DNA from: Panorpa germanica
Taxonomy: Eukaryota; Arthropoda; Insecta; Mecoptera; Panorpidae
Reading direction: 5' to 3'
Assembly: GCA_963678705.1 (NCBI GenBank)
Contig: OY783207.1
Coordinates: forward strand, 8,122,001-8,186,000
Length of the DNA stretch: 64,000 nt
Positions 56,813 to 64,000 of this stretch are shown piece after piece; the stretch's first letter is position 1, and the number at the start of each line of letters is the position of its first letter. The notes beneath the pieces are model-generated. The model had not been told where the DNA came from. It searched no databases and saw only the letters and a list, made by a program, of their open reading frames with translations. The translations under genes and the position numbers were made by a program.

Positions 56813-57640
56813 TGTAACAGTCCCATATAGATTCATTAATTATTGATAATATATTTTAACTAACTATTTAGGAACCATTGGATGGTTCAAATACAAAGTA
56901 GTTTTAATAGTTTTAGGCGTCTAAATGTCGTGAACATTATTTACATTAAGTATAGCTTTATCGAGAGAACCATGTCCGTATATTAGTGTTATACTCAAAA
57001 CTGCTGACAAAGTATTTACAATAACTTTTAAGAGAAATATTAACTAACTTCTTTTGTGTGTATGGCACGTGTACTTTGAAATAATGTTTATATTAAAACC
57101 AAACTCAAAATCAAAGCCATGATGACGGAATAAGTTTAAATGAGGTCATCTTTTGAAACAAAGAGTTTGAATCTATATAAACCGAGTTTAAGAAAGGAGA
57201 GGGGGTCAGACCATCAGATCACACGTTCGGTTTAAGTCAGTTGCCATAGTCGTCCCAAAGATTATTAAAATTACTAAGATTTGTATTAATTAAGTTTTTG
57301 AATAATAAAGAATTAAGTGTTAATGATTCCCTTGTTTTAATTATAAAAGTACTTAGAGTTAAGAATCGCATCGCGTTAAATAAAGTGATTGTCCAAAGCA
57401 GAGGAAGCTGCCTGCAAAAAGTACAAAAAGTAAGTAAAACCTAATATATTTATGTAATATGATTAGATGAGGTAATAAGTCCTGATAGATATATATACCT
57501 CCACAATTAGCTTAGGTCATCCGACTCAAGGAGATCCAGATCTCTAAAAGAATCTTCGCTTGAGACGATTGTAAAATCGCTCTCATAAAATAAGTAACTA
57601 CCACCATATATAGATAGAAGATATAAGGGGTAGGGTTACA
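56813..57640 (+). repeat. 5' LTR, 828 bp
   Basis: Begins TGTAAC (56813) and ends GTTACA (57640), a perfect 6-bp terminal inverted repeat with the canonical TG...CA ends. The primer-binding site starts 3 nt later. Inside are TATATAA at 57174-57180, initiator-like TCAGAC at 57206, and AATAAA at 57304 and 57379, giving a U3-R-U5 layout. The 3' LTR lies outside the window, so the ends cannot be checked against a second copy. Confidence 0.8.
57174..57211 (+). promoter_or_regulatory. LTR core promoter
   Basis: TATATAA (57174-57180) is followed about 30 nt later by TCAGAC (57206-57211), close to the arthropod initiator TCAGTY. A second initiator-like TCAGAT is at 57214. Transcription starting here would define R and place the poly(A) signals 95-175 nt downstream. 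Confidence 0.55.
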
Positions 57641-57643
57641 TTT

Positions 57644-57660
57644 TGGTGTCAGGTGTGGGG
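57644..57660 (+). other. Primer-binding site
   Basis: TGGTGTCAGGTGTGGGG begins with TGG, the complement of the tRNA CCA end, 3 nt after the LTR. The sequence would pair with a tRNA ending CCCCACACCTGACACCA. This looks like a tRNA-Leu 3' end, the primer class reported for micropia/mdg3-type elements. The tRNA assignment is from memory and needs a tRNA set to confirm. Confidence 0.75.
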
Positions 57661-58848
57661 TAGTTTAAAAAGGGGTGTATTGAAAAGAGGTGTATTAAAA
57701 GAGAAATATGTTAAAAGAGAGGTATTGAAATTGTGGGGTGAATTAAAAGAAAAAGGGTATAGAAATTGTAAGGTATTTTAAAAGAGAGATACGTTAAAAA
57801 AAAGGTATTAAAATTGTGGGTTGTTAAAAAAGGCAGAAATTTGAGTAATTGGGAAAAAAGGCATTAAGTGGAAAATTTAATTTGAGAAAATAAAGGGATA
57901 ATCTTAGTAACTGGGAAAAAGAAATAAAAATAAGTTTTATTAATTGTGAAAAAAGGAATAAATTGTAGTAACTGGGAAAAACGGATAAAAAGGATTAATT
58001 GGAAAAAAGGAATATAGTTTATTAATTGCAACTAGCAACTGCAGATTAATAATTAGAAAAAGAAAAGATATCAGCATAATTCAAGAAAAGGGAATATTTA
58101 AATAATCAAAGAGTGGGGTATTTTAAGTTTTGTAAAAGGGAATAAATTTAAGGAACTAAACAGTAGATAATTTTTTTTAAACCATAATTTGTTAAAGTTG
58201 AATATTTTTGTTTTAACCGTAACTAAATAAGGGATATTTTTTAAATAGTTTTTGTAATTCACAAGTAAAGTGGCACGTTTTTATAAAGTATAAAGTTTTG
58301 AGTCATTGTAACAGGAATTGAAAAAATAAGTAGTTTTTGTTTTGTCGTAATTTTATTAAGTGATTGGAACAATTAAAAAATTTGTAACACAACTTATTTG
58401 AAATTATTTTGAATTTATTTTTAGATTATATGAGAAAATATTGAGTATTACATAAAATAGTTTATTTGATTTTATTTCACTAATAATTAAAAATTATTTT
58501 ATCAATTTACAATTCGGTAATATACTTTTGTCATAAATACTGTTTGTCATAATTTTTATTTGAGTTTTTATTGTTCTAACTCAGTCTATATTAAATATAC
58601 TAGCATTTTGTTTGACCTACTTAAAAATAATTTGTTTGTTTATTTTTATGTATATATAAACAACTAGACGTTCCATTTCGTTTCAAAAAGTAAATCACAA
58701 GAGTACAGTTTTGTTAAAATAACTAAGGCCGTGTAAGATATTGTTTACTTTTAAAAAAAAAAAAAATAGATTTTAAAATATTTGTAGTAGTTTATTGAAG
58801 CTTACTAAAGGTTTTTATTTGATTTAAAGTTTATTCCAAATAGTTAAA
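57661..58848 (+). other. Long leader with two sets of tandem repeats
   Basis: The 1.19-kb untranslated leader is purine-rich. Five units like AGTAACTGGGAAAAAGAAATA start at 57844, 57906, 57939, 57966 and 57993. Before them, three units like GGTATTGAAATTGTGGGGT lie near 57722, 57765 and 57804. TTAAAAGAGA words recur between them. A repeat-bearing leader recalls the insulator array in the leader of Drosophila gypsy, but the units here are not Su(Hw) sites. Roles in packaging, translation control or chromatin binding are only guesses. Confidence 0.7.
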
Positions 58849-59970
58849 ATGACAACTAATGAACCAAACGTAGATATTGCCCCAGAAATTCCTAAATTAA
58901 AAGGATTGAATTATATACCATTCTTTGACGGTACAGGTAGCATAGCAACATTTTTAAATGCGGTGGATCAAATGGCAGAATTGTTGGATTGGACCGATAA
59001 GGTACAATCAGTTACCGTATTTGCGAAAGTGTCGCCTGATGTAGCTGAATATCTTTTGTCTAATTCGGAGGTTCAAAGTGAGAACCGTAGTTATATGAGT
59101 ATTCGTAATGCATTATTGTCTAGATATAGCAGAAAAGGACCATCTGCTCTGAGACAAGCAGAAATTGAGTTCGGGGGTTGTAAACAAAGACATGGCGAGA
59201 CTGTTTATGAATTTTCACAAAGGTTATGGGCATTAGGGTCAAAATGTGTACCAGAAGCAATTGATAAAGAGCAAGAAAAGAAGCTTACAGTTGAGTTGCA
59301 AGTAGCCGTTTTAAAAAGATTTAAAGAAGGGATATCGCCGAGATATTCTAAGTTTATTTGGGCCGTGGATCCCAAGAGTTTTAATAGTGCCGTTGAAATT
59401 GCGGAAAGAGTAGAAACCGATGATTTAGTCTCATCGAAGCAAGGCTACGTAGCAGAGATTGCTACAGGTGGTACAAACCGAATAAATAGAACCGACCACT
59501 ATTATGTAAATCGCACATCTCAAAATAATCAATCGTCTATGCGACCTAGCAACTCGCGTAGCGGTTCACAAAGCCGAAGGTTAAATAATAGGCAAAGAGA
59601 TGGAGTAAGGTGTTACAATTGTAACAGAGTAGGACATTTTCAGAGAGATTGTCGTAGTCGTCCTCAACGGGAGATAAGAGACGTAAGAGATCGATTTCAA
59701 AGAAATCGCAGTTTAAATAGGTATGGAAACCGTAGTCAAAGTAATGACCGATTAGGGAGAGTTAGAGTCCTCCAAGAATATAATGATAGCCGTAGTCCTG
59801 CGAGAAATCAGAGACAAGTGACTTTCCAAAGTAACAGAAATATTCGCAGCATCGAAAATAAGCCAAGCGAAGTAGAAGAAAGAAATTTACGCGCGTCCAA
59901 TAATTATGAGGATAATTTAAACGGATTGATGGCTTCACTCACTACCCGAGACGTAGAAGCCATTCAATAA
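58849..59970 (+). CDS. gag: Gag polyprotein
   Basis: 373 codons. The ATG at 58849 is preceded by AAA, a good insect start context, and is the first long frame after the leader. Residues about 1-200 are a retrotransposon capsid-type region, with the stretch around residues 90-130 (SRKGPSALRQAEIEF... ETVYEFSQRLWALGSKC) typical of the Ty3/gypsy retrotrans_gag fold. Residues about 220-253 are Ser/Arg/Asn-rich and basic. Residues 255-268 form one CCHC knuckle, CYNCNRVGHFQRDC, the nucleocapsid RNA-binding motif. An Arg-rich tail follows. Codons 357-358 (TTA AAC) are part of the -1 slippery site, so the last 15 residues belong only to free Gag. The protein would assemble the cytoplasmic particle and package genomic RNA. 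Base composition matches pol. Confidence 0.96.
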   Translation: MTTNEPNVDIAPEIPKLKGLNYIPFFDGTGSIATFLNAVDQMAELLDWTDKVQSVTVFAKVSPDVAEYLLSNSEVQSENRSYMSIRNALLSRYSRKGPSALRQAEIEFGGCKQRHGETVYEFSQRLWALGSKCVPEAIDKEQEKKLTVELQVAVLKRFKEGISPRYSKFIWAVDPKSFNSAVEIAERVETDDLVSSKQGYVAEIATGGTNRINRTDHYYVNRTSQNNQSSMRPSNSRSGSQSRRLNNRQRDGVRCYNCNRVGHFQRDCRSRPQREIRDVRDRFQRNRSLNRYGNRSQSNDRLGRVRVLQEYNDSRSPARNQRQVTFQSNRNIRSIENKPSEVEERNLRASNNYEDNLNGLMASLTTRDVEAIQ

Positions 59971-59985: not shown

Positions 59986-62900
59986 ATCTTACAGAGTTGT
60001 ATGTACCGGCATTTCATGATAATCAATGGTTTCTTAATTTAGTAATTAATGGTCAAAATTGTAACGTTCTTATAGATAGTGGTGCAGGCGCCAGCCTACT
60101 AACTAGAGAATGTTTAAAAACAGAAAAAATTACAGAATCGCAAAATATCTTGCGAGATGCACAAAATAATAAAATACATACACTTGGTAAAAGCAGATTA
60201 AAGTTAGATTTATTTGGGGATAATGTGACTTTTGATTTTGAAATTGTAGAAAATATGGAAAATTGGACAGGTATAATTGGGTTAGACTTTCTTCGTAAAT
60301 TTGGGATAATTGTAGATTTTGGAAAGGGTATTTTAATATACAGAAACGTTATTTACGACATTAATCGTAATACTGTACATGATTTTCAGAGAGATAATTT
60401 GAATATTAATAATATGATTAGAGAAAATGTAAATGGTATCATTAGAAGGCAAAAGCGTGTTATATCAAAGTCAGGGAAAATCGTACAAAAGAATAGAAAA
60501 GGTAGAAATATAGGTTGTACTGAAACAGAAAATATTGACGTAAAAAGAGAAGTAAATAATCAGCGAATTGATAAGATAGGGCACGAATATAAAAGTTTTG
60601 ATGATTTTCTAAAATGGAAAATTAGTAGATTTCCAACGATAGAGACGTTGTGCAAAATAAATTATAATAAGGGAGATTTGTTTAATGCATCTAGCAAGTA
60701 TGCATTGGGTCATTGTGTAGCCTCAGATTTACGTATGTCACAAGGAATAGCAGTTGAATTTAAAGAAAGATTTGGCAGAGTTGAGCAGCTTTTGAGACAG
60801 AAACAGAAAAAGGGTGGATTAGCTATATTAAAAGATGAAAATCGTTTTATATATTATTTAGTGACAAAAAAGAGGAGTAACGAGAAACCTCTCTACGCAG
60901 ATTTATATTCGTCAATAATTAAATTACGGGATCATATGTTAGAAAATAAAGTGAAATTTATTGCATTACCATACATAGCATGTGGGCTAGATAAATTAGA
61001 TTTTACAATAGTGAGTAAAATGATTGAATATATATTTTCTGAAAGTAAAATAAAGATAGCATTCTATGATGGCGAATCGGAAAAAAATGAAAAAAGGTAT
61101 ATGAACTGTGTAATAAGTAAAAATGATAATGATTTAAAAGATAACATTGACGGAAAGAATGTTAAATCCCAAGAACAGGTAAAGAAATGGAAGAACTTAC
61201 AAACAAAGTGGTTAAAAAGAATACACACAGCTGAGCGAGCTGAAAAAATAAACACAACTATGAATGAGAAATCTGAAACCACTCGAAAGCGAACAGACGC
61301 ACACATGTGTAGTAGTAATCGGTATAGTGTTAGGTTACTAGGTCAAGAAACGTTACCGCCCCGATGTACAATAAATGTTCATGCATTTCAAAAAGACATT
61401 AAGGAAGGTCATGGGATTTTTAACCCAGAATTGAGCATAGATGGAGTATTAGTAGCAAGGAGTGTAAATTCAATATGTAAGGGTAGGTTAATATGTAGAA
61501 TAACCAATGTTACGCAAAAGAATATTAATATACCAATAAATACTAAGATAGGTATAATAGAGCCATATGATGACGAATATACTGAAACAGTTGAATTATT
61601 AAGAGAACACGTCCGGCAACGTAATAAAAATATTTTAATTGGTGCTGTACGATCAGCAGAAACAAACACAGGGTTTGAAAATATACAATTATTTGATGAA
61701 ATAGGTTATAATAATTTAACAGCTAAAGAAGATAAAATTATACATGAAGTTACCAATCAGTGGAAGCAAAAAAGTCATAAGAATGATGATATAAATAAAA
61801 CACAGAGAATAACGGAACTTTTTAGCAAAATAAAGTTAAATCATTTAAGTGCTAGAGACCAAAGTAAAATGGAAAATTTAATTTACGAATATCGCGACAT
61901 ATTTTTAACAGAAGGTCAAGAATTGAAAACTACCTCGATAGTTAAACATAAGATAATAATTCAAGATGTTCCTCCTATAACTAAACAACCATATAGAGTT
62001 CCGCATGCACAGTTACAGGTACTGAGAGAACAGATAGATCAAATGCTTGAAGATGGCATAGTAGAACCATCAATGTCACCGTGGTCCAGTAATGTTGTTC
62101 TTGTAAATAAGAAAGCAGCAAATGGGGAAAACAAGGTTAGAGTTTGTATAGATTACAGGGGTCTTAACTCAATAACAAAAAGAGATTACTTTCCATTACC
62201 ACACTTAGTAGACACTCTTGATAAATTAGGCAAAGCAAGTTTATTTACCAAATTAGATTTAGCATCGGGATTTTGGCAAATTGAAATGGACGAAAAATCT
62301 AAAGAATTAACAGCATTTTCAACACCTGATTTACACCTTCAATTTAATGTTATGCCGTTTGGGTTAGTATCAGCTCCTGCTACATTTCAGAGACTTATGT
62401 ATGCAGTGTTAGCGGGTTTAACCGGAGTACATTGTTTAGTTTACCTAGATGATATTATAATATTTAGTAACGATGATGTAGATTCACATATCCAGAGAAT
62501 TAAAGAGGTTTTCGATCGCTTGAGAGAAGCAAGTTTGACATTGAAGCCTAGCAAATGTGAATTTATGAATAAAGAAACGCAATATCTTGGTCATATTATT
62601 TCTAGTGATGGTGTAAAGGCAGATCCAGAAAAAACGGAAGTAATTAGAAACTATCCGCGTCCGAAAACAGTTAAACAAATCCGATCTTTTATAGGGTTAG
62701 CTTCATTTTATAGACGATTTATAAAGAATTTTTCAGAATTATCATCAAGCCTAACGAAACTAACTTGTAAAAATGAGTCATTTATTTGGGGACCTGAACA
62801 AGAGAAAAGTTTTGAAGCATTAAAGAACGCGTTATGTTCTGAGCCAGTCTTAGCTTACCCAGATTTTAGTCAAGAATTTATATTAGGGACAGATGCATCA

Positions 62901-64000
62901 GGAATCGCATTAGGCGCAATCCTAAGCCAAGTTCAGGATGGAGTAGAACGTCCTGTCGCATACGCTTCTCGTAAATTAAATAAATGTGAGAAAAATTACT
63001 CAACCACAGAAAGGGAATGTTTAGCGATTTTATGGAGTTTATCACACTTTCGTACATATTTATATGGTAAGAAATTTAAGATTCAAACAGATCACAGATC
63101 ATTACGTTGGTTAATGACTATGAAAGATCCAATGAAAAGTAGATTAGCAAGGTGGGCTTTAACTTTAGCAGATTACGATTTTGAAATTATTTATAGGCCA
63201 GGGGTAAAACACGGTAATGTCGATGCATTAAGTAGAATAGAAACAGAAAGTATTGCAGCCGTAGCAGCTGAAGAAGTTCCATATTGGGATTGGTGTCAAA
63301 TTAAAAATGAACAAGCTAGTGATTCCCATATTAAACAATTAATAACGCAAACTAAGTATGGGGAGAAAAATGATTATTATTTAGATGATAGGGGTATATT
63401 GTATAAGAAAAGTAATGAAAAAACAGATAGAAATGACTGTGTAGTAGCACCAACACGAATGGTACCGAATATATTATATATGTTTCACAATACGCCTTCA
63501 GCAGGGCATAGGGCATTTGAAGGGACACTACAGATAATAAAGAAACATTTTGTATGGCCAGCAATGAGACAAGACATAAAAAGATATTGTGAAGAATGTT
63601 TAAGCTGTCAAATGAGAAAAACGTCACCTCATTTAAAACGAGCACCGTTACAGAAATTTAAACCGCTTACTTATCCATTTGAAAGAATTTCACTAGATAT
63701 TGTAGGACCATTAGTACTCAGTAATTCAGGAATGAAGTACATTTTAACAGTTCAATGTGCATTCTCAAAATACTTGCAAGCGTTTGCAATACCTGATCAG
63801 TCTGCAGAAACGGTAGCAAAGGTATTTTGTGAACAAGTTATAGCACGTTATGGTACTCCTAAAGCTTTATTGACAGATAGAGGAACTAACTTTTTGTCCG
63901 AATTATTTAGAAACGTTTGTAAAAGACTAGACATTACGCAACTTTCAACATCAGCGTATTCTCCTTCGACAAACGGAAGTTTAGAGCGTTGTCATCGTAT
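59916..64000 (+). CDS. pol: Pol polyprotein: protease-macrodomain-RT-RNase H-integrase (partial)
   Basis: Open for 1361 codons from the frameshift site to the window end; I read every codon and found no stop. Residues counted from 59916. Protease: LIDSGAGASLL with catalytic Asp54 (60075) and IIGLDFL at 60273. Macrodomain: residues about 246-385 (separate entry). A basic linker follows, then a beta-rich PR-RT linker around 61360-61570 (LPPRC...IPINTKIGIIEPYD). RT: FTKLDLASGFWQIEMD with Asp781, and YLDD at residues 843-846. RNase H: TDAS (Asp993), STTERE, TDHRS (Asp1059), VDALSR (Asp1103). Integrase: HHCC zinc finger (His at 63486 and 63507, Cys at 63597 and 63606), then Asp1261, Asp1321 and Glu1357, a D,D(35)E spacing. 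All catalytic residues seen are intact. It is expressed as Gag-Pol by -1 frameshifting. Confidence 0.97.
60651..61070 (+). other. TARG1/OARD1-like macrodomain inserted in Pol
   Basis: About 140 residues between protease and RT match, block by block, the single-domain ADP-ribosyl hydrolase TARG1 (OARD1, C6orf130). NKGDLF corresponds to the start of the ADP-ribose pocket. GHCVASDLRMSQGIAVEF to the H-C-x-S-x-D-x-x-M-x-x-GIA loop, followed by FKERFG, then a Gln/Lys-rich helix. GGLAILKDENRFIYYLVTKK to the central strands, PLYADLYSSI to the next helix. ALPYIACGLDKLDF to the catalytic loop, and a final helix and strand end at IKIAFY. The nucleophilic Lys (human K84, TKKR) is here at 60867-60869. The general acid/base Asp (human D125, GLD) is at 60990-60992. 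Both are kept. Known TARG1 removes mono-ADP-ribose from acidic residues and from DNA ends. Length matches a whole domain. Codon and base usage match the rest of pol. Confidence 0.9.

What the first reader, a model, noticed from the sequence alone, without database searches (positions are those of the whole stretch)
60651..61070. A retrotransposon that carries a TARG1-type ADP-ribosyl hydrolase (macrodomain)
Seen: an uninterrupted domain in the middle of Pol with every signature block of TARG1/OARD1, including the catalytic Lys (TKKR) and Asp (GLDKL). Known: macrodomains of alphaviruses and coronaviruses remove ADP-ribose placed by antiviral host PARPs, and TARG1 reverses mono-ADP-ribosylation of proteins and DNA. 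Inference: this element acquired the domain from a host gene and uses it against a PARP-based defence, or to clear ADP-ribose from its cDNA ends. Its placement between PR and RT ensures packaging, much as dUTPase is carried in Pol or PR by some retroviruses. I know of no description of this in a Ty3/gypsy element.
Basis: partly seen in the sequence, partly recalled or inferred. Interest (0 to 1): 0.95.

Follow-up and report, generated by a model that had tools for sequence, protein, structure and literature searches.

The report
Retrotransposons carrying an ADP-ribose-removing enzyme
Jumping genes in this genome have built a copy of a cellular enzyme that strips ADP-ribose tags from proteins and DNA into their own replication protein, which suggests that cells may fight such elements with ADP-ribose and that the elements fight back.

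Summary
Confirmed, and larger than the finding states. Window 60651-61070 lies inside an open Ty3/gypsy-type Pol frame and encodes a TARG1/OARD1 domain: E 9e-39 to human TARG1, predicted fold 0.7 A from it, catalytic Lys and Asp present. The element is young: its two LTRs are identical over 828 bp, with a 4-bp target duplication. Pol opens exactly at a T TTA AAC slippery site in gag phase, so the domain is probably made only as Gag-Pol. In the window's own 464-Mb genome the family has dozens of copies, and at least six further pol families carry TARG1-type domains, between PR and RT or between RNase H and IN. Two unnamed database Pol proteins carry it after IN. Lys and Asp persist in 27 of 28 uninterrupted fetched family-A copies and 28 of 28 family-B copies; pN/pS is 0.35 and 0.25. 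Other families have lost catalytic residues. Most likely it is a particle-packaged hydrolase that reverses host ADP-ribosylation of the element's proteins or cDNA; activity, packaging and target are inferred. Virus-borne macrodomains are known, and a review reports macro-domain ORFs in fish retroviruses. My ten paper searches listed no TARG1 domain inside a Ty3/gypsy Pol.

The parts
56813..57640 (+). 5' LTR (TGTAAC...GTTACA, 828 bp)
   Evidence: 828 of 828 bases identical to the 3' LTR at L029:3045-3872 (window coordinates 66944-67771); AAAG on both outer sides
57641..57660 (+). candidate primer binding site, directly after the LTR
   Evidence: position and TGGTGTCAG-like motif, by eye and from recall; no tRNA was matched
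58849..59970 (+). gag ORF, 373 aa, with CCHC zinc knuckle
   Evidence: zf-CCHC E 2.1e-6
59916..59922 (+). in-phase -1 slippery heptamer T TTA AAC; the pol frame opens at its first base
   Evidence: heptamer at the same place in 8 of 8 loci L001-L008
59916..64000 (+). pol frame (continues to a stop ending at window coordinate 64826)
60024..60317 (+). aspartic protease
   Evidence: Pfam gag-asp_proteas E 1.1e-6, RVP 4.5e-5
60651..61070 (+). TARG1/OARD1-type macrodomain with catalytic Lys (TKKR) and Asp (GLDKL)
61340..61660 (+). linker stretch between macrodomain and RT, also found in family C
   Evidence: tblastn, 39% identity over 90 aa, E 1.5e-14 to L015; no Pfam hit for 60900-61900
62109..62600 (+). 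reverse transcriptase
   Evidence: RVT_1 E 1.9e-38
62787..63176 (+). RNase H
   Evidence: RT_RNaseH_2 E 1.1e-25, RT_RNaseH E 6e-20
63450..63965 (+). integrase zinc domain and core
   Evidence: Integrase_H2C2 E 9.5e-19, rve E 7.7e-13

Best explanation
A recently active Ty3/gypsy-type LTR retrotransposon carries, as a domain of Pol between protease and reverse transcriptase, a TARG1-type ADP-ribosyl hydrolase derived from an animal OARD1 gene (shown: homology, fold, residues, position). Ribosomes probably shift -1 at T TTA AAC near the end of gag, so the domain is made at low level as part of Gag-Pol and is packaged with PR, RT and IN (inferred from anatomy). There it most likely removes ADP-ribose that host ADP-ribosyltransferases attach to Gag/Pol proteins or to the cDNA (inferred). 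Human TARG1 uses the same residues on proteins and on DNA, so both targets are open. Several pol lineages hold such domains in different positions, so the benefit was selected more than once or the domain moved; some lineages then lost catalysis.
For: TARG1 identity by sequence and fold. Lys and Asp kept in A 27 of 28, B 28 of 28, D 2 of 2, E 1 of 1, F 1 of 1 examined and in P0003, P0004, P0006. pN/pS well below 1: A 0.35 (bootstrap 0.20-0.64), B 0.25 (0.15-0.47). Present across families and in three positions. Slippery site in phase. The genome has PARP-domain genes: 10 matches from 18 candidates. parp-1 null flies: 5 of 8 significantly changed mobile elements are up (PMC7712786, passages).
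Against: No activity or packaging shown. Families C (0 of 3 keep Lys or Asp), G and L071 (Asp lost) keep the domain without full catalytic residues. The domain is less constrained than PR and RT: in family A, shared variants are 16 nonsynonymous to 12 synonymous, against 2 to 9 in PR and 4 to 7 in RT. A relative without the domain exists (L070). The authors of PMC7712786 allow an indirect cause. The literature seen gives no direct case of ADP-ribosylated retroelement particles.
Confidence: 0.6

Rival explanations
1. One reading: the macrodomain binds ADP-ribose on chromatin or at DNA breaks and steers the pre-integration complex there, as chromodomains do for chromovirus integrases (recalled). 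Catalysis is secondary.
For: In B, E, F and G the domain lies between RNase H and IN, in D before an IN zinc domain in the next frame, and in P0004 and P0006 after IN. Families C, G and L071 have lost catalytic residues.
Against: In the window family, family C and P0003 it lies between PR and RT, away from IN. Lys and Asp are kept in nearly all copies of A and B.
Confidence: 0.17
2. Narrow nucleic-acid role: the packaged domain protects single-stranded or terminal cDNA from a DNA-modifying host ADP-ribosyltransferase. This is a special case of the best explanation.
For: [quoted passage not shown] Reverse transcription exposes both (established knowledge).
Against: No animal transferase acting on thymidine is known (stated for human cells in PMC8501950). 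At DNA ends PARG, MacroD2 and ARH3 act too, and more strongly than TARG1.
Confidence: 0.18
3. Passenger: a captured sequence without function, drifting in Pol.
For: The domain is lost or decayed in some families (L070, L071) and is less constrained than RT.
Against: pN/pS 0.35 and 0.25 with upper bounds 0.64 and 0.47; Lys and Asp kept in 55 of 56 full uninterrupted A and B copies.
Confidence: 0.04
4. Artefact or chance insertion of a cellular gene into one copy.
For: None found.
Against: 57 matches of at least 88% identity across many contigs; P0003, from another record, has the same order; the domain is uninterrupted while the genome's own OARD1 has three exons.
Confidence: 0.01

Closest known systems
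TARG1 / OARD1 (C6orf130), human, PDB 4j5r/4j5s
   Different: A free cellular protein; here it is an internal domain of a retrotransposon Pol. Activity of this domain is untested
Fish epsilon-like retroviruses with macro-domain ORFs (Basta et al. 2009, seen only as cited in PMC4977317, passages)
   Same: A retroelement that carries a macrodomain
   Different: Described there as an additional ORF in retroviruses; macrodomain class not stated in what I saw. Here a TARG1 domain inside a Ty3/gypsy-type Pol, in several positions
Seadornavirus-type proteins: Banna virus VP5 (P0001), Kadipiro virus VP8
   Same: TARG1-like domain, 51% and 47% identity to the window's
   Different: dsRNA viruses, unrelated replication machinery
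Orchid Ty3/gypsy elements with an m6A demethylase (2-ODD/AlkB) domain (PMC9289625, passages)
   Same: Ty3/gypsy elements that captured a host modification-removing enzyme
   Different: Other enzyme, additional ORF, plant host
DarG macrodomain, antitoxin of DarTG
   Different: Bacterial; no transferase partner is encoded in this element

Membership tests
TARG1/OARD1 ADP-ribosyl hydrolases | Closest sequence homology to TARG1 | tested here: met
   E 8.8e-39; all 5 PDB sequences at E up to 0.01 are TARG1/C6orf130
TARG1/OARD1 ADP-ribosyl hydrolases | TARG1 macrodomain fold | tested here: met
TARG1/OARD1 ADP-ribosyl hydrolases | Catalytic Lys84 and Asp125 equivalents | tested here: met
   window family A 27 of 28 copies K/D, one K/E; mutants K84A and D125A are dead in human TARG1
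TARG1/OARD1 ADP-ribosyl hydrolases | ADP-ribose hydrolysis | not testable with these tools
   needs an enzyme assay
Ty3/gypsy (Metaviridae) LTR retrotransposons | Gag with zinc knuckle; Pol order PR-RT-RH-IN | tested here: met
Ty3/gypsy (Metaviridae) LTR retrotransposons | LTRs with TG...CA ends and a short target duplication | tested here: met
   828/828 identical LTRs, AAAG on both sides
Ty3/gypsy (Metaviridae) LTR retrotransposons | RT falls in the Ty3/gypsy clade | not tested
   no reference RT tree was built; a GPY/F-like motif after IN is seen by eye (recalled)
Alphavirus/coronavirus (MacroD-type) viral macrodomains | MacroD-type macrodomain closest to alphavirus/coronavirus ones | tested here: not met
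Errantivirus (enveloped Ty3/gypsy) | env ORF after pol | tested here: not met
   window element: no ORF above 106 aa between the pol stop and the 3' LTR. Family E (L019) does have one: Baculo_F E 6.8e-61

The most novel reading that the evidence does not exclude
Animals possess an ADP-ribosylation-based restriction of reverse transcription, a DarT-like or PARP activity that marks single-stranded or terminal cDNA, and LTR retroelements of several lineages have captured TARG1, the hydrolase that erases that mark, into their particles. This would be a eukaryotic counterpart of bacterial DarTG defence and its erasers, found through its antidote.
Probability: 0.18. Interest if true: 0.96.

Novelty: new variant of a known kind. 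Interest (0 to 1): 0.83.

Why it matters
Captured counter-defence genes reveal defences. TARG1 domains inside Pol of several retroelement lineages, in three positions and in most families with catalytic residues kept, point to ADP-ribosylation as a force acting on retroelement particles or cDNA. The case is directly testable: the domain is small, and assays and dead mutants exist for human TARG1. One genome also offers a natural series: catalytic residues kept (A, B, D, E, F), degenerate (C, G, L071) and domain absent (L070).

Tried and rejected
Rejected: artefact or single-copy accident; alphavirus/coronavirus-type macrodomain. Recent capture from this genome's own OARD1 is unlikely (three exons, 49% identity), though the tree does not reject A with the own OARD1 as one clade (p 0.382).

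Led nowhere or inconclusive: viral-contig scan with the domain, 11 stretches matched a pattern and none encodes a relative. P0006 C-terminal region as query found only itself. Macrodomain trees: (13 retroelement rows of 59) the best tree needs 5 changes and starred branches force at least 2; (8 retroelement rows of 45) the best tree needs 5, starred branches force only 1, and one clade of all 8 is not rejected (AU p 0.212), nor A with B (0.449) nor A/B/D/E/F (0.269). The number of captures is therefore open. F, G and L071 were not in the tree; C, G and L071 were left out of the tree. Own-genome search with the family G domain: busy three times. The species was not identified. A first script for catalytic residues used loose patterns and gave unusable counts; replaced by alignment to human TARG1. 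Family C fold: AF2 only pLDDT 70, best match still TARG1, E 6.5e-11. Literature: ten searches, seen as listings, showed no TARG1 domain in a Ty3/gypsy Pol; only open-licence PMC text is covered. Basta et al. 2009 is not held. PMC7729036, PMC8672886 and PMC7264820, searched for passages, added no case.

Full report
What is there. The window ends inside an LTR retrotransposon. Its 5' LTR is 56813-57640; the 3' LTR lies beyond the window and is identical over 828 of 828 bases, with AAAG on both outer sides. Gag is 58849-59970 with a zinc knuckle. The pol frame opens at 59916, directly after a TAA and exactly on T TTA AAC, which lies in gag phase; a hairpin of -20.6 kcal/mol is predicted downstream, without a shuffled control. 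The heptamer stands at the same place in 8 of 8 family-A loci L001-L008. Pol runs to a stop that ends at window coordinate 64826 and holds PR, RT, RNase H and IN in that order. The window element has no ORF above 106 aa between pol and the 3' LTR.

The domain. 60651-61070 encodes a domain 47% identical to human TARG1, E 8.8e-39, modelled at pLDDT 90.8 and 0.7 A from TARG1 structures. Pfam Macro scores below its cut-off. Lys84 and Asp125 equivalents are present. K84A abolishes TARG1's rescue of DarT toxicity (PMC8501950, passages), and D125A abolishes removal of ADP-ribose from DNA ends (PMC5725667, passages).

Not one copy. In the window's own genome (464,208,970 bases, 249 contigs, unnamed) a search with the domain scored 150 of 592 candidates, so counts are lower bounds. 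57 matches are at least 88% identical (some are two pieces of one copy), and 9 of them lie in pol frames of 1571-1638 codons. A second set of roughly 40-52% identity includes 18 places with a frame of exactly 1389 codons.

Other families. I fetched 20 places, 20 more family-A copies, 19 family-B copies with one family-C copy and five more loci. Tblastn with window pieces, Pfam and an OARD1 profile gave these orders. A (window): PR-MACRO-linker-RT-RH-IN. C (L015, L016, L023 intact or nearly so in this part, L069 with a stop in the domain): same order, domain 32-35% identical to A. B: PR-RT-RH-MACRO-IN. D (L017): RT-RH-MACRO, then 271 aa without Pfam hit, then an IN zinc domain in the next frame. 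E (L019): RT-RH-MACRO-IN, followed by an ORF with a baculovirus F-type envelope domain (Baculo_F E 6.8e-61). F (L072): PR-RT-RH-MACRO-IN. G (L074): RH-MACRO-IN. L071: a weak, decayed domain (E 4e-7) between PR and RT. L070: RT 59% identical to the window's, PR-to-RT gap of 332 aa against about 550 in the window, no domain found. Outside this genome, P0003 has the window's order, PR-MACRO-RT start, and P0004/P0006 carry the domain after IN. So three positions are in use.

Relatedness. RT identities: A-C 57%, D-E 64%, P0004-P0006 76%, B 46-49% to all others compared. Macrodomain identities: A-B 46%, A-human 47%, B-human 50%, so domains of different pol lineages are no closer to each other than to cellular OARD1; D-E, at 44%, are closer to each other than to human (36%). 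The genome has its own OARD1 in three exons at about C19:723,300-724,100, with GT-AG at both introns in the sequence shown; A is 49% identical to it, B 45%. Trees put the retroelement domains in several spots, but one clade of all eight tested is not rejected (AU p 0.212). One old capture that moved, and several captures, both remain possible.

Selection and catalysis. pN/pS: family A macrodomain 0.35 (bootstrap 0.20-0.64, 28 copies), PR 0.18 (17 copies), RT 0.23 (20 copies); family B macrodomain 0.25 (0.15-0.47, 26 copies), RT 0.09 (21), RNase H 0.14 (26), IN 0.26 (23). Copies under 85% identity, with gaps, stops or under 75% coverage, and L024, were dropped; pairs are not independent. Against my reading, variants shared by at least two family-A copies are 16 nonsynonymous to 12 synonymous in the domain, against 4 to 7 in RT and 2 to 9 in PR, so the domain is less constrained than the core enzymes. 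Lys and Asp: A 27 of 28 (one K/E; 1 copy excluded), B 28 of 28 (4 excluded), D 2 of 2, E 1 of 1, F 1 of 1, P0003, P0004 and P0006 all; C 0 of 3 (R/C; 1 excluded), G K/S, L071 K/E.

How it works, most likely. The domain is made as part of Gag-Pol after a -1 shift and rides in the particle (inferred from anatomy). There it reverses ADP-ribosylation (inferred). The genome has PARP-domain genes: 10 exon-level matches from 18 candidates, on C9, C21, C4 and C12; I did not look at them further. In parp-1 null flies, 8 mobile elements changed significantly, 5 of them up, 3 of the 8 of the gypsy superfamily; ten more were up without passing the cut-offs, nine of them gypsy-superfamily; the authors allow an indirect cause (PMC7712786, passages). 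Human TARG1 acts on protein, on DNA ends and, apparently without redundancy, on thymidine-linked ADP-ribose in single-stranded DNA. Reverse transcription exposes single-stranded DNA and DNA ends, so cDNA is as plausible a target as Gag/Pol proteins. Against the DNA reading: no human transferase that modifies thymidine is known, and at DNA ends PARG, MacroD2 and ARH3 act too and more strongly. The main rival is a reader that steers integration, which fits positions next to IN and catalytically degraded families but not the window family's position.

Known or new. Virus-carried macrodomains are well known. A review states that fish epsilon-like retroviral sequences occasionally include macro-domain ORFs (PMC4977317, passages, citing Basta et al. 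2009, not held). TARG1-like domains occur in Banna virus VP5 (51%) and a putative Kadipiro virus VP8 (47%). Capture of a host enzyme by Ty3/gypsy elements is known in orchids (PMC9289625, passages). My ten paper searches listed no TARG1 domain inside a Ty3/gypsy Pol, within open-licence PMC text only. I rate it a new variant of a known kind.

Limits. No enzyme activity, packaging or target was shown. The species is unknown; an insect is my guess, from the F-type envelope element and from the own OARD1 grouping with a caddisfly protein and Banna virus VP5 (98/94). The RT was not placed among reference elements.

Noticed in passing
L019:445-2322 (-): Family E, which carries the macrodomain between RNase H and IN, is followed by an ORF with a baculovirus F-type envelope domain (Baculo_F E 6.8e-61): an errantivirus-like element with a TARG1 domain.
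   Followed up: partly
L015, L016, L023 (family C); L074 (G); L071: Families that keep the macrodomain inside an open Pol frame but have lost one or both catalytic residues: possible binding-only derivatives or decay.
   Followed up: partly
P0001 (Banna virus VP5), P0002 (Arctopsyche grandis LOC143919268), L073 (own OARD1): The TARG1-like domain of Banna virus VP5 groups with a caddisfly protein (100/94) and then with this genome's own OARD1 (98/94), which suggests an insect-type donor.
   Followed up: no
P0005: A protein named from a marine transcriptome (mmetsp) joins a NADAR Pfam domain with a TARG1-like domain.
   Followed up: no
L020; G000:C5:16555200, 16561561 and 16567922: Tandem family-B copies: two 6,048 bases apart in L020 and three 6,361 bases apart on C5, as expected of elements that share an LTR or of local duplication.
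   Followed up: no
57641-58848, and window coordinates 64827-66943: Long stretches without a large ORF: a 1.2-kb leader before gag and 2.1 kb between pol and the 3' LTR.
   Followed up: no
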